Origin: an uncultured Lentisphaeria bacterium
GTDB lineage: Bacteria; Verrucomicrobiota; Lentisphaeria; Victivallales; Victivallaceae
Direction: 5' to 3'
NCBI GenBank assembly: GCA_949298075.1
Contig: CASFVA010000009.1
Location: 92,295-156,294, forward strand
DNA length: 64,000 bases
Shown: positions 4,921-29,950 of the stretch, piece after piece
How positions within the stretch are numbered: the stretch's first letter is position 1
Layout: every line of letters begins with the position of its first letter
Translations under genes and position numbers: made by a program
The notes under the pieces: generated by a model
Seen by the model: the letters and a program-made list of their open reading frames with translations, nothing else
What the model was told of the DNA's origin: nothing
The model's database searches: none

Positions 4921-6608
4921 CTCAGCAGCTCCCGGAGCCGTTTTTCCGCTTCCAGACGCAGATTTTCCGGGACCCCCTCTTCCAGCGCCCGGTGCAGGTA
5001 GGCTTCCGCCAGCTCAAGCTGTCCCAGCTCCTGGGCCGTCAGCGCCCTCAGAAAGCAGAATCGGCCGGCCAGTTCCGGAATGTCATTTTCATCGACCCTT
5101 TCGAAAAACCGCTCCGCCGCTTCCCACTGGCCCATTCCCATCTGAGCGATGCCGCCGTAATAACAGAGCAGCGACGGCGGCACCCGGCCGGCCGCCATGC
5201 CCTCGTCGACCACCGCGGCCATGGCTTCCGGATCATGCCGGTCATAGGCCATGGCAATCAGCCGCTCCGCCGCCGCGGTGTTCGTGAAACCGCCGGCCTC
5301 CCAGGCGTAACGGTAGTACTTTTCGGCGTTGGCGGCATCCCCGCCGGCCGCCAGCGCCGCGCCCCAGGCGACAAAATCCGAGGACCGCAAATACGACTCC
5401 GGTTCGGGATCCCAATGCCGCCAGCCGGCAAACACTGCCGCAACCAGCAGAACTCCCGCCGCCGTCCGGCGCCACGAGACCGGACGCCGCAGCCAGTCGC
5501 CCGGAAGTTCCGCCGCCAGCAGAATCAGATAAGGCGCCAGCATCAGCCGGTAGCGTCCTATCGGTTCCCGCACGCAGAGCGGCAGCACCAGCAGGACGAC
5601 CGGCATCAGCAGAATCCATGCCCGCCGGCGCGACCGGCCGGCCGCCAGCAGCCAGAACAGCCCGGAGGCCGCCGCCGGCAGCAGAACCGCCGGGCCGGGC
5701 AGCCAGTCCAGCAATGGAAACTCCCGGCATAAAAAATAATAGTTCAGATTCTCCGGCAGTTCCAGCACGCTGAACAGCCGCGGAATTCTTGCCGCCATGC
5801 GTCCCAGAACCGTCAGCCAGACGCCCGGATCAGCCGGCGGAACTCCGCCCGCCGCCGGCGAAGCGGCGGCCGCCTCAGGCAGGTTGAATTCAAGAGAATA
5901 AGGCAACACATTGAAAAACGCATTCCAGTATCCGGCCAGCACACCGTTGAAAAGCAGAGCCGTCCCCCAGACCAGCAGCATGCCGCCGGCACAGCCGCCC
6001 CAGCACCGCCAGAACCGCCGCCGGCACACCACGGCCACCCAGACCAGCGCCCCAAGCGCCAGCGGAAGCGCGGCCGGACGGCCGACCGCCGCCAGTCCGA
6101 GCGCCGCGCCGGCCGTCAGCAGCTCGTTCGGACCGTATCCGCGGTCGCGTGCCCGGACCAGAGCCCAGAAGCCCAGCAGCGTCAGATTGATTACCACCGC
6201 ATCCTGGAGCACGGCAAACTCGTAGATCAGAAACGGTCCGTACAGTGCGTAAAACCCCCCGGCCAGCAGCGCCGGACACCGCCGCCGCCATATTCGCAGG
6301 GCAATATCGGCAGTCAGCACCGCGCCCAGGACCCCGAGCAGGGCCTGCACGGCCACCACCGCCAGCGGAGCATGCTCAAACCCGTTGAAAGCCCGCACCG
6401 CCGCGACTATGAACCGGTGGACAACAAAAAGCGGCGGGAATTCACCATTGTCCCATTCCGCGAAACGCAGCATGGTCTGCATGTCCAGTCCCGGCACCAG
6501 GTGGTAATTCCGGAACGGGGAACCGGCATAACTCCAGCCGAACGCCAGCCGCACCGCAAGAGCGGTTGCCGCCACGCACCATAAAATTTTCCGGTCGGTT
6601 TTTATCAT
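4917..6608 (-). CDS. GT39-like polytopic membrane glycosyltransferase with C-terminal TPR region
   Basis: About 563 residues from the start MIKTDRK, chosen because AGGTG lies eight bases upstream; a longer frame to 6659 has no such support. There are roughly ten hydrophobic segments. The first external loop carries LDMQTMLRFAEWDNGE, the acidic loop expected of the PMT/ArnT class, in which lipid-linked sugars are transferred from the outer face of the membrane. The last 140 residues are soluble and helical with TPR-like periodicity (NAEKYYRYAWEAGG, AERFFERVDEN, LELAEAYLHRALEEG). The substrate is unknown. It is translationally coupled to the downstream AraC gene and is probably driven from 6663-6691. 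Confidence 0.75.
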   Translation of the reverse strand: MIKTDRKILWCVAATALAVRLAFGWSYAGSPFRNYHLVPGLDMQTMLRFAEWDNGEFPPLFVVHRFIVAAVRAFNGFEHAPLAVVAVQALLGVLGAVLTADIALRIWRRRCPALLAGGFYALYGPFLIYEFAVLQDAVVINLTLLGFWALVRARDRGYGPNELLTAGAALGLAAVGRPAALPLALGALVWVAVVCRRRFWRCWGGCAGGMLLVWGTALLFNGVLAGYWNAFFNVLPYSLEFNLPEAAAASPAAGGVPPADPGVWLTVLGRMAARIPRLFSVLELPENLNYYFLCREFPLLDWLPGPAVLLPAAASGLFWLLAAGRSRRRAWILLMPVVLLVLPLCVREPIGRYRLMLAPYLILLAAELPGDWLRRPVSWRRTAAGVLLVAAVFAGWRHWDPEPESYLRSSDFVAWGAALAAGGDAANAEKYYRYAWEAGGFTNTAAAERLIAMAYDRHDPEAMAAVVDEGMAAGRVPPSLLCYYGGIAQMGMGQWEAAERFFERVDENDIPELAGRFCFLRALTAQELGQLELAEAYLHRALEEGVPENLRLEAEKRLRELLR

Positions 6609-6662
6609 GTCTTTCACCTGGTCCGCCGTCCCGCTTCCCAATCCGGCGGGGCTGCGCAACTA

Positions 6663-6691
6663 AATATATTTCACCCCGGTTTTTTTTGCAA
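6663..6691 (-). promoter_or_regulatory. Putative promoter for the GT39-AraC-lipoprotein unit
   Basis: On the minus strand TTGCAA (6686-6691), 17-base spacer, TATATT (6663-6668). It is arranged back to back with the alaS promoter, the two -35 boxes being only seven bases apart. Confidence 0.6.
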
Positions 6692-6698
6692 GCCGAGC

Positions 6699-6727
6699 TT
6701 GAAAAATACGGGGCCGGCCAGTATAGT
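6699..6727 (+). promoter_or_regulatory. Putative alaS promoter
   Basis: TTGAAA (6699-6704), 17-base spacer, TATAGT (6722-6727). It lies 55 bases upstream of the chosen alaS start, which argues against a longer alaS frame beginning at 6699. Confidence 0.6.
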
Positions 6728-6782
6728 AAGACATTTATTTAAACGTGGCGTCAATACCATACCCCATGAGGTGAACATAAAG

Positions 6783-8567
6783 ATGAAAGCAGCAGAAATC
6801 CGCCGTAAATACATCGACTTTTTCAAGAAACACGGACATCAGGAAATCCGCAGCGCCTCCCTGATTCCCGACAATGATCCGACCTGCCTTTTCACCACCG
6901 CCGGGATGCATCCGCTCGTGCCCTACCTGCAGGGAGCCAGACATCCGGCCGGGCGCCGGCTTACCGACTTTCAGAAATGCATCCGCACCGGCGACATCGA
7001 CGAAGTCGGCGACGCGGTGCACCTCACCTTTTTTGAAATGCTGGGAAACTGGTCGCTCGGCGACTACTTCAAGGCGGAAGCCATCCGCTTCAGCTTTGAA
7101 TTTCTCACCTCGGAGGAACAGCTGGGCATTCCGGTCAGCATGCTGGCGGTAACCGTATTTGCCGGCGACGCCGACGCCCCTTTCGACGCCGAGGCCTACC
7201 GGCTGTGGAATGAACTGGGAATTCCAGCCGAACGCATTGCAAAACTCGGCAAAAAAGACAACTGGTGGGGACCGGCCGGCACCACCGGTCCCTGCGGTCC
7301 TGACACTGAAATGTTCTACTGGACCGGTCCCCTGCCGGCGCCGGCGGTGTTCGATCCGGCCGATAAACGCTGGGTGGAAATCTGGAACGACGTGTTCATG
7401 GAATACAACAAAACCGCCGAGGGCACCTACGAGCCCCTGGCCCAGCGCAACGTCGATACCGGTATGGGACTCGAACGGGTCACCGCCGTGCTGCAGGGAA
7501 AGGCGAGCTGTTATCAGACGGAAATCTTTGAACCGCTGTTTGCCGCGCTGGACCGGGTCCGCGGGGCGGCGGCACCGGCCGGTGACCGCACACCGGGCGA
7601 GCGCATCATCGTCGATCACCTGCGGGCCGCCACATTCATCCTCGCCGACGGCATCACGCCGGGCCGGGTTGACCAGCCTTACGTGCTGCGCCGCCTGATC
7701 CGCCGGGCGATCCGCGAAGGACGCAAACTGGGCATTGCCGGCCCGTTTGCGGCGGAAGTCGCACAGGCGGTGATTGACCAGCTTGGCGACGTTTATCCGG
7801 AACTCCGGGAACAGCGTGAAGTTATTATTTCCGAACTCGATCGCGAAGAAAAACTGTTTGCCGCCACGCTGGAAAACGGCACCCGGGAATTCCAGAAACT
7901 GATCGACCGGGTTCCACCCCACATTGCCAGAAAAGTGATTTCGGGGAAAAACGCTTTCAACCTCTACGAAACTTACGGTTTCCCGATCGAACTGACCGTG
8001 GAAATGGCTCGCGAGCAGGGGTTTGAAGTCGATCTGCCCGGCTACCGGGAGGCTTACCGGCGGCATCAGGAACTTTCCCGCGCCGGGGCCGAACAGAAAT
8101 TCAAGGGCGGACTGGCCGACCACAGTGTGGCCACGGCCCGGCTCCATACCGCCACCCACCTGCTTCAGGCGGCATTGCGCCGGGTGCTCGGCGACCACGT
8201 CGAACAGCGCGGCAGCAACATCACCGCCGAACGGCTGCGCTTTGACTTCTCCCATCCGGACAAAGTCACTCCGGAGCAGCTGGCCGAAGTCGAAAAACTC
8301 GTCAACGCAGCCATTGCCGGCAACCTCCCGGTGGAGTGCCGCGAAATGTCGGTCGAGGAAGCCCGGAAAACCGGAGCTATGGGTTTGTTCGGCAACAAGT
8401 ACGGTGAAGTGGTAAAAGTCTACCGCATGGGCGACGTCAGCTGCGAGATCTGCGGCGGCCCCCATGCCGCCAACACCGGTGAACTGGGCGGTTTCAAAAT
8501 TCTCAAAGAGGAAAGCTCCAGTCGCGGCGTCCGCCGCATCAAGGCGGTCATCACGCCCCGGGACTGA
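6783..8567 (+). CDS. alaS: Alanine--tRNA ligase, short form lacking the C-Ala domain
   Basis: Charges tRNA-Ala with alanine. The start MKAAEIRRKYIDFF is preceded by GAGGTGA and matches the usual family start. The class II catalytic core occupies about 1-250 (FTTAGMHPLVPYL, GPCGPDTEMFYW), followed by the tRNA-recognition region and an editing domain with zinc motif HTATH near 455 and CGGPHAANTGELGGF near the end. The protein stops at 594 residues, right after the editing domain; typical bacterial AlaRS is about 875 residues and carries a DHHA1-type C-Ala domain, absent here. A compact family of this length is known, so this is probably a natural variant rather than a truncation. The STAS gene follows after 31 bases. 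Confidence 0.93.
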   Translation: MKAAEIRRKYIDFFKKHGHQEIRSASLIPDNDPTCLFTTAGMHPLVPYLQGARHPAGRRLTDFQKCIRTGDIDEVGDAVHLTFFEMLGNWSLGDYFKAEAIRFSFEFLTSEEQLGIPVSMLAVTVFAGDADAPFDAEAYRLWNELGIPAERIAKLGKKDNWWGPAGTTGPCGPDTEMFYWTGPLPAPAVFDPADKRWVEIWNDVFMEYNKTAEGTYEPLAQRNVDTGMGLERVTAVLQGKASCYQTEIFEPLFAALDRVRGAAAPAGDRTPGERIIVDHLRAATFILADGITPGRVDQPYVLRRLIRRAIREGRKLGIAGPFAAEVAQAVIDQLGDVYPELREQREVIISELDREEKLFAATLENGTREFQKLIDRVPPHIARKVISGKNAFNLYETYGFPIELTVEMAREQGFEVDLPGYREAYRRHQELSRAGAEQKFKGGLADHSVATARLHTATHLLQAALRRVLGDHVEQRGSNITAERLRFDFSHPDKVTPEQLAEVEKLVNAAIAGNLPVECREMSVEEARKTGAMGLFGNKYGEVVKVYRMGDVSCEICGGPHAANTGELGGFKILKEESSSRGVRRIKAVITPRD

Positions 8568-13751: not shown

Positions 13752-14894
13752 TCAGCGGCGGCCTCCGGCGGCGGATTCAAGTTGCTCCGCCATGAGTTCC
13801 AGCATCGCCCGGGCCGCACCGGGACGGGCCAGCTGAGCCACGGTCGCCGCCCGCTGGCGCCACCGTTCCGGTGTTTCGAGAAAATCCCGCACCAGGGCGG
13901 CGGCGCGTTCGACCTCAAATTCGGCATTGTCCACCCGGACCGCCCCTCCGGGTCCGGCCAGGTAATCGGCGTTATCGCTCTGGTGATTCTCCGCGGCGTA
14001 GGGATAGGGAATCAGCACCGCCGGTCGGCCGAAGAGCGCCAGTTCCGCCACCGAACTGCCGCCGGACCGGCTGAACACCAGATCGGCGGCACCGAGAAAC
14101 CAGTGCATGTGTTCATCGGATTCCAGCAGCAGAAACGGAAAATCCGCATCGCCGTAAATCCGCCGGGGTTCCTCGGCCTTGCCGCGACCGGCCAGATGCA
14201 GCACCTGGAAATCATTCCGATCCAGTCCGGCCAGGGCCTCAGGAAGAATCCGGTTGAAAATCGCCGCCCCCTGGCTGCCGCCGAAAATCAGAATGGTCGG
14301 CCGCTCCGGCTCCAGACCGGCGTCAAAGTGGAGATTCAACGCCGCCAGCGCCTCGGCACGGGTGATGTTCCGCGCCGCCTCCAGTTCCGGACGCACCGGC
14401 ATGCCGCAGACCTTCACCGGACAGCGGCAGGAAGCTCCGTTGACCGGTGGAAATCCCGCCCCCAGCGCCAGCGCCCAGCGACTCAGCAGCCGGTTGGCCA
14501 GTCCGATCCGGGCATTGCCGTCATGCAGAAAAACCGGAACGCCGTTCCGGCGGGCCGCCCAGATGGCCGGAAGCGAGGCAAAAGAACCCATGCCCAGCAA
14601 AGCCTGCGGCTGAAAGCTCCGCAATTCCTTCCGGGAATCCCGGATGCCTTGCCGCAGTCCGCGCAGAAAACGCCAGGGGTGTTTCTTCCAGGACGGCATG
14701 CGGGGCAGAACCACCGCCGGCACACCATGTTTTTCCGCGGCCGCCCGCTGCGCCTCGGAATTGACTCCGGACAACAGCAGCAGCACTTCGCCCCCACCGG
14801 ACTGAAACTGCCGGGCAATGCTCAACCCGGGATAAAAATGTCCTCCGGTGCCGCCGCAGGTCACCGCCAGCCGTTTGAATTCAAAGTCAGCCAT
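13752..14894 (-). CDS. murG: UDP-GlcNAc--MurNAc-pentapeptide-undecaprenol GlcNAc transferase
   Basis: 380 residues from the start MADFEFKRL, which has GGAGGAG upstream and lies one base after the ftsW stop. Converts lipid I to lipid II on the cytoplasmic face of the membrane. The N-terminal Rossmann domain has the glycine-rich loop TCGGTGGHFYPG; the C-terminal domain has ILIFGGSQGAAIFN and the UDP-GlcNAc site around RSGGSSVAEL and LIPYPYAAENHQ. Length is normal (E. coli 355). It is the last gene of the tsaD-to-murG group, directly after ftsW and the UDP-sugar pyrophosphorylase gene, so donor synthesis, lipid II synthesis and polymerisation are encoded together. Confidence 0.96.
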   Translation of the reverse strand: MADFEFKRLAVTCGGTGGHFYPGLSIARQFQSGGGEVLLLLSGVNSEAQRAAAEKHGVPAVVLPRMPSWKKHPWRFLRGLRQGIRDSRKELRSFQPQALLGMGSFASLPAIWAARRNGVPVFLHDGNARIGLANRLLSRWALALGAGFPPVNGASCRCPVKVCGMPVRPELEAARNITRAEALAALNLHFDAGLEPERPTILIFGGSQGAAIFNRILPEALAGLDRNDFQVLHLAGRGKAEEPRRIYGDADFPFLLLESDEHMHWFLGAADLVFSRSGGSSVAELALFGRPAVLIPYPYAAENHQSDNADYLAGPGGAVRVDNAEFEVERAAALVRDFLETPERWRQRAATVAQLARPGAARAMLELMAEQLESAAGGRR

Positions 14895-14895
14895 A

Positions 14896-16113
14896 TCAGT
14901 TCTCCTCCGACAACCGGTCCTGCCGGATCCGATTCCACAAGTTGCGCATGAATTTGTCGGCGTAATCCGGCTCAACCGTGTCGACCGCGATGGAGACCAG
15001 CAGACCGACCATAGTCAGACCGACCACCAGATTGCTGCCTCCGTAACTGATGAACGGCGCCGGCATGCCCTTGGTGGGAATGCTTCCGGACACCACCGCC
15101 AGATTGATCGCCGCCTGCAGGGTGATGCCGCAGGTAATCGCAAACCCCAGCAACAGTCCGAGCCGTGATTCCGACCGGAGCGCGATGCGCAGGGCGAAAA
15201 AACCGAAAAGCAGGTAACAGATCACCACCACCGCCATGCCGCACCAGCCCAGTTCCTCACCGACCACGGCGAGAATGAAGTCAGTGTGGGCCTCGGGCAG
15301 ATATTTGGCTTTCATCCGGCTGGCCATGAAACCGACGCCGAACCAGCTGCCGGATCCCAGTGCCATAAGCGAGGTCCAGAGCTGATATCCCTCATCCTGA
15401 TTGACCTTTTCGGGATTCAGATAACTGGTAACCCGCGACAACCGCTCGGGATCGAACAGCCAGACGTACACCCCGATCAGCACCGCCCCGATCGGCGGAA
15501 TGACAAAATACCGCCAGTACAATCCGGCCACCATCAGCGTAAGAAACGCCATGGACGAAATCAGCAGCGTGGTTCCGAGATCCTTGCCGAGCAGAACCCC
15601 GCCAATCACCAGTCCGGCGCCGGCCGCCAGCGGCAGCAGTCCCCTGCGGCTGCGCAGCTCGCTGAATGTGCGGATGTTTTCGCTGCAATACCTGGCGACA
15701 AAGAGCGCCACGGCCAGTTTGGCAAATTCCGATGGCTGCAGGGAAAAGCCGCCGATCCGGATCCAGCGGTTCGCCCCGTTGATCGGATCAAAGCAGAAAC
15801 GGGCCACCAAAAGCAGCAGAAAACTGCCGCCCATCAGGAATGGACTCCAGGCGGCCAGCCGACGGTACCCCAGCGCGAACACCACCGCGCCGGAAACAAC
15901 GCCTCCGGCCACCCAGATCAGCTGGTTGCGGAAATACTTGGCTCCGGCCACACCGTAGCTGGCCGAGTAGAGCATGGTCAGCCCGAACACCACCAGCAAG
16001 GCGGTGATCAGCAGCAGCCCCTGCGCCGCGGCCAGAGATCCGGAACCGGATCCGGCCGGCTCGAGCCGGACCGCCGAACCATGCAGACCGCCGCCGCCCG
16101 TCACCGCCGCCAT
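14896..16113 (-). CDS. ftsW: Septal SEDS peptidoglycan glycosyltransferase FtsW
   Basis: 405 residues with about ten membrane segments. It polymerises lipid II at the division septum together with a class B PBP. Diagnostic motifs: ANRWIRIGGFSLQPSEFAK, the catalytic loop AHTDFILAVVGEELG, and GMPAPFISYGGSNL. A 30-residue Gly/Ser-rich cytoplasmic N-terminal extension precedes the first helix. It starts one base after the pyrophosphorylase stop, with a weak ribosome-binding site, so coupling is likely. Position next to murG supports FtsW rather than RodA. The second SEDS protein at 26468-27598 has an altered catalytic loop. Confidence 0.94.
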   Translation of the reverse strand: MAAVTGGGGLHGSAVRLEPAGSGSGSLAAAQGLLLITALLVVFGLTMLYSASYGVAGAKYFRNQLIWVAGGVVSGAVVFALGYRRLAAWSPFLMGGSFLLLLVARFCFDPINGANRWIRIGGFSLQPSEFAKLAVALFVARYCSENIRTFSELRSRRGLLPLAAGAGLVIGGVLLGKDLGTTLLISSMAFLTLMVAGLYWRYFVIPPIGAVLIGVYVWLFDPERLSRVTSYLNPEKVNQDEGYQLWTSLMALGSGSWFGVGFMASRMKAKYLPEAHTDFILAVVGEELGWCGMAVVVICYLLFGFFALRIALRSESRLGLLLGFAITCGITLQAAINLAVVSGSIPTKGMPAPFISYGGSNLVVGLTMVGLLVSIAVDTVEPDYADKFMRNLWNRIRQDRLSEEN

Positions 16114-25791: not shown

Positions 25792-26358
25792 ATGAAAAAA
25801 ACTTTTCGTTTCACTCTGGTCGAGGTTCTCGGCGTCATCGTGCTTATCAGCATTGTCGCCGGACTCGGTTTCGCCGGTTACAGTTACGCCATGAACTCAG
25901 CCAAGGAGTCCAGCACCAGCTCGCTGATCAAACGGCTCGAAGCCGGGCTCGACACCATCCGGGTCAAGCACGGCTACTACCCGGTCAGCACCGGTCCGGG
26001 CAAAGAAAGTCCGATCAAAGTGGAAATCGACAGCAACAACATATTTGAAAGCATCGACTTCGGCGGCACCGAAATCAGCAAAACCAAAAATCCTGAACTT
26101 TTCAAAACTTTTATCAAAATCGTCGAACCGGACTTCATTGTCAAACACACCACCCGCATCGGATCCTCCACCGTGCTGACAGATGCCTGGGGCGGCGTAA
26201 TCCGCTACTGCTCGCCCGGCGTTATCAATGCATCCAAATATGATCTCATCGCTCCTGGCGCCGACGGTCTCTACGGCAAAAACAAAAAGGCCAATACCAA
26301 CGGTCTCAGCTTCGAAGATTACCGCGACAGCGACGACATCACCAACTTCGCCCTCTGA
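25792..26358 (+). CDS. Type II secretion GspG-like pseudopilin
   Basis: 188 residues. The N-terminus MKKTFRFTLVEVLGVIVL is a class III prepilin signal and hydrophobic helix with the conserved Glu at +5 after Phe, but the residue before the Phe is Arg rather than Gly; RFTLxE-type leaders are common in Lentisphaerota. The C-terminus has the GspG pattern LTDAWGGVIRYCSPG and KYDLIAPGADGLYG. After processing it would be anchored in the inner membrane and built into a pseudopilus or act as a surface protein. No other secretion genes are nearby; it has its own promoter and faces the SEDS cluster tail to tail. Confidence 0.85.
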   Translation: MKKTFRFTLVEVLGVIVLISIVAGLGFAGYSYAMNSAKESSTSSLIKRLEAGLDTIRVKHGYYPVSTGPGKESPIKVEIDSNNIFESIDFGGTEISKTKNPELFKTFIKIVEPDFIVKHTTRIGSSTVLTDAWGGVIRYCSPGVINASKYDLIAPGADGLYGKNKKANTNGLSFEDYRDSDDITNFAL

Positions 26359-26467: not shown

Positions 26468-27598
26468 TTATCCCGGCTGCGATGTGCCATTTTCGTCTGG
26501 CGGCGCCTGGTGTGAAACGGCTTTCAGCGCACTGAGCATCATTCCGAGCAGCAGTCCGCACCCGGCAAAAGAGCTTCCGCCGTAGCTGATGAGCGGCAGC
26601 GTCAGTCCGGTCGGCGGCAGCAGGCAGAGATTGACGCTGACATGCACCAGCGTCTGCAGCGCCAGCAGCGCCACCGCGCCCATGGCAAAAAGCCGGGCAT
26701 CGTCGGGCAGCGGCCGGATAAGCGCCGCCCGGGACGGCACCGCCACCAGAAACACAAACAGCAGAACCACCACGGTGCCGCCGGCCAATCCCAGCGTTTC
26801 CATCAGCGTGGCAAAAGCCGAGTCGTTGTAGGGCAGCGGAAGATAAGCGTTGCTCCAAAGTGCATTGCCGAGCTTGGAGCCGAAAATCTGGCCGCGCGCT
26901 ATCGCCAGCTCGAACTGCCGGACATGCCAACCGCTGCCCAGCGGATCCGATTCCGGATCAAGAAACCCCGTGAGCCGGCGCATGGCATAGGGGTGAGTCA
27001 ACACAAATCCGGCGGCGGCGACCGCCGCCGCGACCAGTACTCCGCCCACCACCCGCACCGGAATTCCACCGAGAAAAAGAACTGTGACCGCCAGCGCCGC
27101 GTAAACGGCGGCCGTTCCCATATCCGGCTGCAGCCCCACCGGAACCAGCCAGGCCAGCGCCGCCAACACCACCAGCCCGCCCCGGCGGAAAGCGGACCCG
27201 GGTCCGGTAAAAATCCGTACCAGCGCCAGCAGATAAAGCGGTTTGGCCAGTTCGCTGGGCTGGAGCGTCACGCCGCCGAACCGGAACCATCCGCACATTC
27301 CGTTGATCCGCACCCCCCAGAACAGCAGCAGCACCAGAGGAATCAGTGAAAGCACCGCCAGCACCGCAGCATAACGCCGGTAAAAACTGAAGTCAAGGCG
27401 GGCAGCCACCGCCAGCACCGCCAGTCCGATCAGGAAATTCCGGAGCTGCAGCAAAGCCAGCATAGTCGGCCCCCGCTCGCCGCTCTGACTGCTTATGATG
27501 GTTAGCAGTCCGAACAAACCGAGCATGAACGCCAGCCCGAACACCGCCGCATCAACGCCGCCGAATCCGTTTTGCTTCTGACAACGCACATCACTCAT
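26468..27598 (-). CDS. Second SEDS-family glycosyltransferase (RodA/FtsW-like)
   Basis: 376 residues from MSDVRCQKQNG, about ten membrane segments. Family motifs are MCGWFRFGGVTLQPSELAK and LTLPLISYGGSSF. In the catalytic loop the usual HTDF...GEELG appears as YNDSAFATLMETLG: the Asp and the first Glu align, but His-Thr before the Asp and the second Glu are lost. It would polymerise lipid II if active. The start overlaps by four bases the stop of the gene encoding an isolated PBP pedestal domain, so the two are translationally coupled and presumably form a complex. Not the main FtsW, which is at 14896-16113. Confidence 0.88.
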   Translation of the reverse strand: MSDVRCQKQNGFGGVDAAVFGLAFMLGLFGLLTIISSQSGERGPTMLALLQLRNFLIGLAVLAVAARLDFSFYRRYAAVLAVLSLIPLVLLLFWGVRINGMCGWFRFGGVTLQPSELAKPLYLLALVRIFTGPGSAFRRGGLVVLAALAWLVPVGLQPDMGTAAVYAALAVTVLFLGGIPVRVVGGVLVAAAVAAAGFVLTHPYAMRRLTGFLDPESDPLGSGWHVRQFELAIARGQIFGSKLGNALWSNAYLPLPYNDSAFATLMETLGLAGGTVVVLLFVFLVAVPSRAALIRPLPDDARLFAMGAVALLALQTLVHVSVNLCLLPPTGLTLPLISYGGSSFAGCGLLLGMMLSALKAVSHQAPPDENGTSQPG

Positions 27599-28284
27599 TT
27601 CCGGACGCCCTCCCCGTCGGCCAGCCGGAACGGCACCGTGACATCGCGCCCCGGCGTCGCTTTGCTGAGCAGCCGCCAGCTGGACGGAATCCACCGGCGA
27701 TAGCGGTCGAGCATTACTGAAAACCGCCCGGGGCTGCCCCGCAGTTCCCGGTCATACTCCAGCTCCCACCCGGAAACTCCGGTCACCGCACCACCGGAAC
27801 CAACCGTCACCGCTCCAACCCGGTCACGAAGTCCGGGCACCGCCGCGACAATCCGCTCCACCCGGCTCCGGATCCGGAGCCCGGACTCCTCCCGCAGCAG
27901 CGGTTCCAGCGCCAGCAGCTCAGCGGCGTCAAGGTGGCGCAGCACCGCGGCACCCGGCCGGAAATTCAGACTGGCAGCCCGCTCCGGCAGGATTTCCGCC
28001 AGCCTTTTGCGCAGAGATTCCTCCATCGGCGCCTCGTCCGCCGTGCTCCAGAGATCGAAATAACGTTCGCTCCAGGCCAGGGGCACCCCGTCCCGGTCCA
28101 GCAGCCGCCCCCGCGCCGCCGGAATTGCCGGTTCAATCCGGGCCAGACGCTCGCCAACCCCCAGATAGAAGTCCCGGCCCGGCACCGCCAGGTAATAGGC
28201 TCGGAAAAAAGCCACCGCCACCCACAGGGCCAGCGCGACCAGCAGCCAGCGGAAACGAAGTGTCATTTCCCGGTTATCCGCCAT
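27595..28284 (-). CDS. Class B PBP pedestal (dimerisation) domain without transpeptidase domain
   Basis: 229 residues. One N-terminal membrane helix (RWLLVALALWVAVAFF) is followed by the typical class B PBP opening IPAARGRLLDRDGVPLA. GVSGWELEYDRELRG with FSVMLDRYRRWIP and PGRDVTVPF matches the end of the PBP dimerisation region, where a normal PBP2/FtsI goes on to a transpeptidase with SxxK, SxN and KTG motifs. Here the protein ends about ten residues later and the next gene starts in an ATGA overlap, so the domain is missing by design, not by a nearby frameshift. In known systems the pedestal activates SEDS enzymes; an activating subunit is the inferred role. Confidence 0.8.
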   Translation of the reverse strand: MADNREMTLRFRWLLVALALWVAVAFFRAYYLAVPGRDFYLGVGERLARIEPAIPAARGRLLDRDGVPLAWSERYFDLWSTADEAPMEESLRKRLAEILPERAASLNFRPGAAVLRHLDAAELLALEPLLREESGLRIRSRVERIVAAVPGLRDRVGAVTVGSGGAVTGVSGWELEYDRELRGSPGRFSVMLDRYRRWIPSSWRLLSKATPGRDVTVPFRLADGEGVRK

Positions 28285-28333
28285 CGTCGTTCACTCCCCG
28301 CTCCACCGCCCGGCCGGAAATCCGCCATGCGGT

Positions 28334-29950
28334 TCACCGTTCCCCGGCCGCCTGATGCAGCAGGTTGCAAAGCAACTGGTAGTTGAGCGGCATGTTGAGA
28401 CACCAGACCCGGCCCTGCCCCACCAAACGGCGGAACTGCTCCTCGCTGAACTGCGAGGCGATTACAACCAGAGGCAGCCTGCGGCCGGCCAGGCGGCGCA
28501 GCCGGGCCGGAAGTTCGTCAGGATCAAAGGCGGTTTCAATCAGAATCACCGCATCGCAGGATTCGGCGGCCACCGCCTTTTCCAATTCACCAACCGTTTT
28601 GAGGAGCCGGCTGTCAACTCCGGAAGCGTTCAGCAGCCGGGCGTAAACATCCGCTTCGCCAACGTCGTCGTCGCAGATCATCACCCGGAGCCGCCGGGTC
28701 CCTGACACCGTGGTCAGGCGAGGATCATCACCGGGGATCATTCCCGAGGAAACCGGACGGGTCTCGGTGCTGAAGTCACTCTTTTCCGTCACTGACGCCG
28801 ACGACGGCAACCGGAACCTCACCACCGTGTGCGATTCAGCATCGCTGCCGACTTCCAGCCGGCACCCGATCCGTCCGGCGATGTCCCGCACAATACCCAG
28901 GCCCAGCACGCCGCTGCCGGCTTCCGGCGGACAAGCGAAATCCTCGTCCGCAACGGCGAGCATGGCGTTGAATTTCTCGGCCAGGTTTTCACGGCACCCC
29001 GAACCGCCGGAATCCCTCACCTCAAACACCACCTGGCGGTTCTCGACAAAACATCCGAACTTCACGGCTCCGCCCGCGGCCGTGGCCCGCCCCACCGCAC
29101 GGATCAGGATGTTCATAAGCTGGAACAGCAGCTCGCGGTCAATCCGCAGCCGGTCCGGAACGCCCGAAGAGTAACGGGTCGAAAATCCCACTTCCCGGAA
29201 TCCCAGCGGCATCTTGCAGCGATTGACCAGGTCCCGGATGAATTCCGCAGTCAGAAATTCGTCGTCATGAGGATTGCGCCAGCGTTCCCGGTCCAGCCGG
29301 CTCAGATCGAACACCTGTTCGATTTCCCGCGACAGCGCACCCACTTTGCGCAGCAGACGCAGCTGCAGTTCGGCCCGCTCAGCATTGGCTCCGCCGGAAT
29401 CGCGGCTCAACACCTGGTACTCCAGCAGCGCCAGGGCCTTGATCATGCCCAGTGAACGCCGGGTTTCCGGCAGCATCCGCGATACGATGCTGAGCTGCAG
29501 TCCGTCGTAGCGTTCGATTTCCAGGCGTTGCTCCACCTCCCGGGCCAGACCGATCTTGAATTTGCGCGCAAGGTTCTGCTGGCGGTCCCGCAGGGAGTTG
29601 AGCGCGACATACAGTGACCGGACTTCGTCATCGGTGATCTGCGCGGTGGAGAGCGCCCCCACCTTGTCGCCGGCGGCCAGAGCGGTCGCAAAGCGCTCCG
29701 CCTCCAGCACCGGACGCAGCACCCGCCGCAGAATAATCCACATGAGCACCGAAGTCGCCAGCATCCAGCACAGCAGCGCCCCCAGCATGATCGCCAGAAA
29801 CAGATCCTCGGGGTCTCCGCTGCTCAGCACACGGCTGAGATAGGGCAGCCGGGCCCCGTAAAGACACGTCAGCGCCGTGGCTCCGCCGACGGCGGCGACC
29901 AGACAACCCGGAAAAACAACCGACCAGGCAATTTTAGTTGTGACCCGCAT
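28334..29950 (-). CDS. Degenerate membrane hybrid histidine kinase (HAMP, pseudo-DHp, HATPase, pseudo-receiver)
   Basis: 538 residues. Two membrane helices (about 10-30 and 52-75) are followed by a HAMP-like linker with LRRVLRPVLEAERF. The helix that should carry the phosphoacceptor reads SRMLPETRRSLGMI, which aligns with the usual MSHELRTPLNAI but has Pro161 in place of His; no His occurs in this helix. The HATPase-like domain keeps VRDSGGSG and LGLGIVRDIAGRIG but has a weak N-box. The C-terminal receiver keeps the acidic pocket CDDD (427-429) and Ser499, but the phosphorylated Asp is Glu472 and the conserved Lys is Asn519. It probably signals by conformation or binding. It precedes the pedestal gene by 49 bases. 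Confidence 0.8.
   Translation of the reverse strand: MRVTTKIAWSVVFPGCLVAAVGGATALTCLYGARLPYLSRVLSSGDPEDLFLAIMLGALLCWMLATSVLMWIILRRVLRPVLEAERFATALAAGDKVGALSTAQITDDEVRSLYVALNSLRDRQQNLARKFKIGLAREVEQRLEIERYDGLQLSIVSRMLPETRRSLGMIKALALLEYQVLSRDSGGANAERAELQLRLLRKVGALSREIEQVFDLSRLDRERWRNPHDDEFLTAEFIRDLVNRCKMPLGFREVGFSTRYSSGVPDRLRIDRELLFQLMNILIRAVGRATAAGGAVKFGCFVENRQVVFEVRDSGGSGCRENLAEKFNAMLAVADEDFACPPEAGSGVLGLGIVRDIAGRIGCRLEVGSDAESHTVVRFRLPSSASVTEKSDFSTETRPVSSGMIPGDDPRLTTVSGTRRLRVMICDDDVGEADVYARLLNASGVDSRLLKTVGELEKAVAAESCDAVILIETAFDPDELPARLRRLAGRRLPLVVIASQFSEEQFRRLVGQGRVWCLNMPLNYQLLCNLLHQAAGER

What the first reader, a model, noticed from the sequence alone, without database searches (positions are those of the whole stretch)
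26468..29950. Three-gene cluster: pseudo hybrid-kinase, transpeptidase-less PBP pedestal, and a second SEDS polymerase
Sequence shows an ordered minus-strand set: a membrane protein with the outline of a hybrid histidine kinase but lacking its phosphoacceptors, a single-span protein that is only the pedestal of a class B PBP, and a SEDS glycosyltransferase coupled to it by an ATGA overlap. Established knowledge: SEDS enzymes need a class B PBP pedestal for activity, normally fused to a transpeptidase. Inference: this is a dedicated polymerase-only glycan machine whose activator has shed cross-linking and whose control comes from a phosphorylation-independent sensor. I know of no described system of this form.
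Basis: partly seen in the sequence, partly recalled or inferred. Interest (0 to 1): 0.78.

Follow-up and report, generated by a model that had tools for sequence, protein, structure and literature searches.

The report
Third cell-wall polymerase without cross-linker
Many bacteria of the class Lentisphaeria carry, besides the two usual wall-building enzyme pairs, a third pair whose partner protein keeps the part predicted to switch on the polymerase but has no cross-linking domain, so this machine likely makes wall-type sugar chains that it cannot tie together itself.

Summary
On the minus strand lie a hybrid-kinase-like protein without phosphoacceptors (KIN), a 229-aa class B PBP pedestal with no transpeptidase (PED), and a SEDS polymerase (SEDS3) overlapping PED by ATGA. 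The genome also has the canonical sets (mraZ-rsmH-ftsL-ftsI, ftsW-murG, mreC-mreD-PBP2, rodA), so this is a third pair. Pedestal-only frames occur in 59 of 98 sampled genomes of the class (Lentisphaeria by its named members, Victivallis vadensis included) and in 0 of 190 others of the phylum. SEDS3 lies directly downstream in 35 of 37 loci, forms its own clade (support 100) apart from FtsW and RodA, and keeps the catalytic Asp in 36 of 36, but has class-specific cavity changes at positions where substitutions inactivate E. coli FtsW. Outside the window's family the operon is led not by KIN but by a second mraZ, a new ~90-aa bitopic protein, PED, SEDS3, headed by 10-bp-spaced TGG repeats (likely MraZ boxes). 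KIN is a family-level neighbour. Class A PBPs were not found in 56 of 60 relatives. Best reading: a dedicated polymerase-only SEDS synthase (inferred); substrate untested. New variant of a known kind.

The parts
26468..27598 (-). SEDS3: third SEDS glycosyltransferase of the genome, 376 aa from the ATG in the ATGA overlap; own clade beside FtsW and RodA
   Evidence: Pfam PF01098 1.1e-64; NCBIfam matches to ftsW (214 bits) and rodA (211 bits), both below their cut-offs of about 337; tree support 100; catalytic Asp kept
27595..28284 (-). PED: single-span class B PBP pedestal with no transpeptidase domain, 229 aa
27595..27598 (-). ATGA overlap: end and stop of PED, start codon of SEDS3
   Evidence: sequence; an ATG or GTG start at the same -4 spacing is possible in 21 of 35 linked loci, window included (my count of the list)
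28334..29950 (-). KIN: membrane pseudo-hybrid histidine kinase (TM, HAMP-like, DHp-CA, receiver-like) without His, Asp or Lys of the phosphorelay
   Evidence: next to PED in 7 of 37 loci
14896..16113 (-). canonical FtsW (followed by murG 13752-14975), for contrast; not part of the unit

Best explanation
PED and SEDS3 likely form a dedicated glycan-polymerising complex in which the pedestal would switch on the polymerase while no transpeptidase is attached, so that strands would be made without built-in cross-linking. The genes, the missing domain, the class-wide pairing and the kept catalytic residues are shown here; complex formation, activation and polymer product are inferred from the known RodA-PBP2 and FtsW-FtsI complexes. 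The unit most likely arose from a duplicate of the division block mraZ-(ftsL)-ftsI-ftsW, lost the transpeptidase once, and was kept in a lineage in which class A PBPs are rarely found, where it would act as an extra polymerase whose strands are cross-linked by other enzymes (all inferred). Control is inferred to be by a dedicated MraZ paralogue at 10-bp-spaced repeats and by a small bitopic membrane protein; in the window's own family the pair has left that operon and KIN, likely a phosphorylation-independent input, stands upstream in part of the members.
For: PED without transpeptidase in 37 of 60 genomes and in 59 of 98 class genomes against 0 of 190 outside (my count of listed rows at E <= 1e-20 with frames under 400 aa). 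Where unlinked, SEDS3 is still in the genome in G040, G309 and G311. SEDS number follows PED: 3 or more SEDS rows in 30 of 37 PED genomes, 2 or fewer in 20 of 23 without (rows can be fragments). SEDS3 one clade, support 100; W102, Q111, P112, E114, D159, D262, E270 and S340-G343 of E. coli RodA in 36 of 36. PED one clade, support 99, against only 5 bPBPs. Canonical sets in the own genome. GT51 in 4 of 60 relatives (1 of 29 near-complete ones), control found in 10 of 14 genomes. mraZ2 in front of PED on the same strand in 15 of 37 loci and mraZ2 near PED in 12 of 20 further genomes; TGG repeats of 3 or more units before 27 of 30 mraZ2 genes against 176 of 20,000 random windows. Pedestal as activator of SEDS: passages of PMC6207328 and PMC8765783.
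Against: No biochemical evidence. SEDS3 differs at cavity positions where substitutions inactivate E. coli FtsW: A135 is Met (35 of 36), R137 is Gly (36 of 36), R243 is Ala/Val/Ile (36 of 36) (mutants in PMC8765783, passages), so activity on lipid II is not assured; R243 is however Gln in 17 of 18 RodA, so that position varies among SEDS enzymes. PED occurs without neighbouring SEDS3 in L072, L180, L182, L183, L199 and L200; in G310 (L182) only two SEDS, FtsW- and RodA-type, were found, and family f9 (L199, L200) could not be checked genome-wide. PED was not found in 23 of 60 relatives, so the unit is dispensable for many. The 4 genomes that have class A PBPs also have PED, so there is no sign of one replacing the other. 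PED-SEDS3 complex structure was not predicted.
Confidence: 0.6

Rival explanations
1. SEDS3 is a polymerase for another lipid-linked sugar (modified lipid II or an exopolymer precursor); the transpeptidase was lost because the product has no peptide to cross-link.
For: Class-specific changes in the central cavity (A135M, R137G, R243A/V/I in FtsW numbering) next to an otherwise kept catalytic core; NCBIfam scores SEDS3 below the ftsW and rodA cut-offs.
Against: The conserved neighbours that I identified are mraZ2 and a small membrane protein, a division-type setting; the neighbourhoods were not annotated exhaustively. W138, Q147, D197, R246, D297, Y379, G380 and G381 are kept in 36 of 36.
Confidence: 0.2
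2. The pair does not polymerise: it is a regulatory pseudo-synthase that binds lipid II or division proteins and tunes FtsW or RodA.
For: Cavity changes at positions that are dominant-negative in FtsW; MraZ-type regulation.
Against: The catalytic Asp and E270 are invariant in 36 of 36 SEDS3, which a silent enzyme would not need; pN/pS of SEDS3 0.14-0.36 in 8 pairs.
Confidence: 0.1
3. PED-SEDS3 works inside the ordinary division machine, lending extra polymerase to FtsW-FtsI and borrowing the FtsI or PBP2 transpeptidase.
For: mraZ-(bitopic protein)-PED-SEDS3 mirrors mraZ-rsmH-ftsL-ftsI; nearly all the relatives have two intact bPBPs.
Against: No fusion or domain linking PED to a transpeptidase was seen; the small protein (three examples) has no Pfam match over a cut-off and none to FtsL.
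Confidence: 0.15
4. Decaying duplicate or assembly artefact.
For: Patchy presence: PED not found in 23 of 60 relatives.
Against: The isolate genome of V. vadensis DSM 14823 and the single-contig genomes G036, G128, G186 have it; conserved reading frames and purifying selection.
Confidence: 0.02

Closest known systems
FtsW-FtsI and RodA-PBP2 (SEDS plus class B PBP synthases)
   Same: SEDS family and catalytic residues; single-span pedestal fold as in P. aeruginosa FtsI (8bh1, 25hr) and T. thermophilus PBP2 (6pl5)
   Different: No transpeptidase domain; separate SEDS clade; class-specific cavity changes; gene order pedestal then SEDS, in many genomes behind its own mraZ
Class A PBPs (GT51 polymerase plus transpeptidase)
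   Same: Would serve as an extra polymerase beside the Rod and division machines (inferred)
   Different: Unrelated polymerase; here no transpeptidase; GT51 found in only 4 of 60 relatives
dcw cluster head mraZ-rsmH-ftsL-ftsI
   Same: MraZ first, a small bitopic membrane protein, then the PBP-type gene
   Different: PBP without transpeptidase, SEDS directly behind, no rsmH between mraZ2 and PED; the true dcw head is elsewhere in the own genome
Pseudo-histidine kinases such as DivL and RetS
   Same: DHp-CA fold; solved DivL and RetS kinase regions are among the best fold matches of KIN
   Different: KIN also carries a receiver-like domain without its Asp and sits beside a wall polymerase; its function is unknown; DivL and RetS biology is recalled or from a search listing only

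Membership tests
SEDS glycosyltransferase (FtsW/RodA/SpoVE) | PF01098 match over its cut-off | tested here: met
   219 bits, cut-off 26.4
SEDS glycosyltransferase (FtsW/RodA/SpoVE) | catalytic Asp (E. coli RodA D262 / FtsW D297) and conserved cavity residues | tested here: met
   D262, W102, Q111, E114, D159, E270, S340-G343 in 36 of 36; but A99, R101 and F263 are changed and R243 of FtsW is replaced
SEDS glycosyltransferase (FtsW/RodA/SpoVE) | lipid II polymerisation | not testable with these tools
   needs purified protein
FtsW or RodA proper | position in the FtsW or RodA clade; equivalog score | tested here: not met
   separate clade, support 100; 214 and 211 bits against cut-offs of about 337, though the genome's own FtsW also falls short at 306, so the score alone proves little
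Class B penicillin-binding protein | PBP dimer / pedestal domain behind one membrane span | tested here: met
   PF03717, PDB profile, fold
Class B penicillin-binding protein | transpeptidase domain (PF00905) | tested here: not met
   frame ends before it and SEDS3 follows at once; no PF00905 match at this place, the own bPBPs are on contigs C66 and C69
Hybrid histidine kinase | phosphoacceptor His, receiver Asp and Lys | tested here: not met
   Pro161, Ile471, Met520; His absent in 41 of 41 aligned rows, receiver Asp present only in 5 unlinked rows
MraZ-controlled operon | mraZ gene in front and tandem repeats upstream | tested here: met
   for many relatives, not for the window: repeats of 3 or more before 27 of 30 mraZ2 genes; the window has none; the own mraZ2, with repeats, is on contig C24
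MraZ-controlled operon | MraZ binding to the repeats | not testable with these tools
   needs a binding assay

The most novel reading that the evidence does not exclude
Lentisphaeria evolved a third class of SEDS machine, MraZ2-controlled, in which a transpeptidase-free pedestal drives a polymerase with a rebuilt catalytic cavity to make a glycan that is never cross-linked by its own synthase: a wall or envelope polymer unlike the sacculus peptidoglycan made by RodA or FtsW.
Probability: 0.3. Interest if true: 0.88.

Novelty: new variant of a known kind. Interest (0 to 1): 0.76.

Why it matters
SEDS polymerases are thought to need a class B PBP both as activator and as cross-linker. Here nature has separated the two roles: the pedestal is kept for what looks like activation alone. 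That makes a standing question directly testable, namely whether a pedestal without transpeptidase is enough to run a SEDS enzyme, and it offers a small natural system for structure and assays. It also suggests how a lineage in which class A PBPs are rarely found could keep an extra polymerase, and adds a MraZ paralogue with its own likely operator and a new membrane protein family. Such a synthase would be expected to be blind to beta-lactams (inferred).

Tried and rejected
Rejected: truncated or misassembled FtsI (isolate and single-contig genomes, conservation). Rejected: PED runs into a transpeptidase in relatives; the one very long frame (666 aa, L041) extends upstream and PED lies at its end. 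Several PED rows count one stop inside the match; in G016, G006 and G026 it is the gene's own stop at the end of the match, the others were not resolved one by one. Rejected: a stand-alone transpeptidase partner; the third PF00905 hit of the own genome (C44, 302 aa) reads by eye as a class D beta-lactamase-like protein. Rejected: KIN as a constant partner (7 of 37). Tried: natural PED-SEDS3 fusions; none among the 120 listed of 770 SEDS3 relatives, 231-410 aa. Tried: simple replacement of class A PBPs; the 4 genomes with GT51 also have PED. Recalled guess corrected: I expected E. coli PBP2 L61 to fall in the conserved RG..D..G..LAW motif; by alignment it lies about eight residues before it and is not conserved in PED. 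The repeat scan covers only loci in hand. The third SEDS of G002 (L157) is very divergent and has no PED beside it. Trees are quick searches with SH-aLRT support; the pedestal tree has only 5 bPBP rows because 5 of the 8 bPBP loci given to the script failed its motif filter, it uses 25 of 37 PED rows, and it warns of long branches. Four near-duplicate SEDS3 rows and L157 were dropped before the SEDS tree; L157 also before the residue counts. Search for the small protein: 16 chosen loci, filtered by length and hydrophobicity, 16 found.

Literature: searches; no listed title or abstract start describes a transpeptidase-free pedestal paired with SEDS; subscription papers and preprints are mostly not held. 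Passages only were read of PMC8406291, PMC5147048, PMC6207328, PMC10449877, PMC8765783, PMC8475190. That E. coli MraZ boxes are 10-bp-spaced TGGG repeats is recalled; PMC8475190 says that MraZ boxes lie upstream of the E. coli dcw cluster and that those of Mollicutes are direct repeats of another sequence.
Full report
What is there. The minus strand of the window carries, in order, KIN (28334-29950), PED (27595-28284) and SEDS3 (26468-27598). PED matches the PBP dimer domain and SEDS3 the FtsW/RodA family over their cut-offs; KIN gives kinase, HAMP and receiver-like matches below theirs. PED and SEDS3 overlap by ATGA; a start at the same -4 spacing is possible in 21 of 35 linked loci.

It is a third pair. 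The own genome has three SEDS genes, two bPBPs with dimer and transpeptidase domains, mreC-mreD-PBP2 on C66, rodA on C58, mraZ-rsmH-ftsL-ftsI on C69 (names by my reading of the translations), and ftsW-murG in the window itself.

It is conserved. PED was found in 37 of 60 genomes, own included. With a profile, 288 genomes of the phylum were searched: by my count of the listed rows, 59 of 98 class members have a short frame (under 400 aa) at E <= 1e-20, and 0 of 190 others do; the best full-length bPBP scores 8e-22 (the list is cut near E 4e-11, the per-genome best values are complete). pN/pS is 0.09-0.54 for PED and 0.14-0.36 for SEDS3 in 8 pairs each.

It is a pair. SEDS3 follows PED on the same strand in 35 of 37 loci; of the other two one contig ends (L057) and in the other (L072, genome G040) SEDS3 lies on another contig and falls inside the SEDS3 clade. 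In 16 named loci 13 are linked; of the three unlinked genomes two keep SEDS3 elsewhere and one, G310, showed only FtsW- and RodA-type genes. In 20 further genomes 18 are linked; the two exceptions are one family, f9; the sets overlap in part. Genomes with PED mostly have three or more SEDS rows (30 of 37), those without mostly two or fewer (20 of 23). Of the three exceptions among the latter, G007 has SEDS3 at the first base of a contig while its KIN contig ends just behind KIN, G017's third row is below the cut-off, and G002 has a divergent SEDS.

SEDS3 is its own kind. In a tree of 69 SEDS proteins 32 SEDS3 rows form one side of a branch with support 100; FtsW and RodA of the same genomes form groups with 99 each. 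The catalytic Asp, E270, W102, Q111, P112, E114, D159 and S340-G343 (E. coli RodA numbers) are in 36 of 36; R101 is Gly in 36, A99 is Met in 35, F263 is Ser in 36. In FtsW numbers A135, R137 and R243 are replaced; A135 and R137 are kept in the FtsW and RodA of the relatives (one RodA has Ser at 137), while RodA has Gln at 243. Substitutions at these places (A135T/V, R137H, R243H/L/P/S) are dominant-negative in E. coli FtsW (PMC8765783, passages). So the enzyme looks alive but rebuilt.

The wider operon. In 15 of 37 loci a mraZ gene stands upstream of PED on the same strand (a 16th locus, L050, has one in opposite orientation). Between them lies a gene for a protein of about 90 aa with one membrane span and a similar C-terminal part, found in the 16 loci looked at, which include L068, where mraZ was not seen. 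Three examples have no Pfam match over a cut-off. In 20 further genomes mraZ2 is near PED in 12, in other orders of the class too; the small protein was recognised in 6 of those 12, some weakly. mraZ2 is a paralogue: the dcw mraZ of the own genome is elsewhere. In the own genome mraZ2 and a small-protein gene sit together on contig C24, apart from PED (small protein there at E 1.8e-4).

A likely operator. Upstream of mraZ2, TGG recurs every 10 bp: three or more units in 27 of 30 genes against 176 of 20,000 random windows from the same loci, real sites included. In 77 loci, runs of four or more occur 22 times, each at a mraZ2 gene. The window has no run of three or more (0.9 expected in shuffles), so PED-SEDS3 there has likely left MraZ2 control.

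KIN. It stands next to PED in 7 of 37 loci, all in the own family; KIN relatives over 160 bits were found in 8 of 60 genomes, all with PED or, in G007, SEDS3. At the H-box no His is found in 41 of 41 aligned rows, which include distant unlinked relatives and some near-identical rows; the receiver Asp survives in five, all unlinked (three rows have no receiver there). The model resembles DHp-CA regions of WalK, ShkA, DivL and RetS. Thus a pseudokinase family wider than this locus; its role beside PED is inferred.

Background. GT51 (class A PBP) was found in 4 of 60 relatives, some of them incomplete assemblies, and in 1 of 29 near-complete ones; the control search rang in 10 of 14 known genomes. 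PMC8406291 (passages) reports class A PBP loss in parts of the PVC group; PMC5147048 (passages) notes that peptidoglycan synthesis had not been tested in Lentisphaerae.

Mechanism. Shown: genes, domain loss, pairing, clade, residues, repeats. Inferred: PED seats on SEDS3 and activates it as pedestals do for RodA and FtsW (PMC6207328, passages; PMC8765783, passages); strands are made without an attached cross-linker; others cross-link them or they stay uncrosslinked; MraZ2 sets expression; the small protein acts like FtsL. Against: the cavity changes, the six loci with PED and no neighbouring SEDS3, patchy presence, no activity data.

Verdict. New variant of SEDS-bPBP synthases, interest 0.76.

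Noticed in passing
L162-L169 and window 28334-29950: A histidine-kinase-like family without the phosphoacceptor His occurs in several families of the order, mostly unlinked to PED; some members keep an intact receiver Asp (L163, L165).
   Followed up: partly
L171:5869-6611: Own-genome mraZ2 plus a gene for the new bitopic protein, with four 10-bp-spaced TGG repeats upstream, apart from PED-SEDS3.
   Followed up: partly
L157:1486-2562: G002 has a very divergent third SEDS protein (PF01098 6.5e-32) beside a lipoprotein-like gene and no PED.
   Followed up: no
L109 (G000 C44, 302 aa frame): PF00905 hit that reads like a class D beta-lactamase (STFK motif by eye).
   Followed up: no
L176:1107-2108 and 5651-8092: In Victivallis vadensis two Ser/Thr-kinase-like genes (by eye) flank the KIN-PED-SEDS3 cluster.
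   Followed up: no
L041, L045, L048, L049, L050, L054: In one subgroup a transporter-like (MFS, by eye) gene stands directly upstream of PED and a conserved ~290-aa gene downstream of SEDS3.
   Followed up: no
window 25792-26358: Prepilin-like secreted protein gene (by eye) on the plus strand, converging on SEDS3.
   Followed up: no
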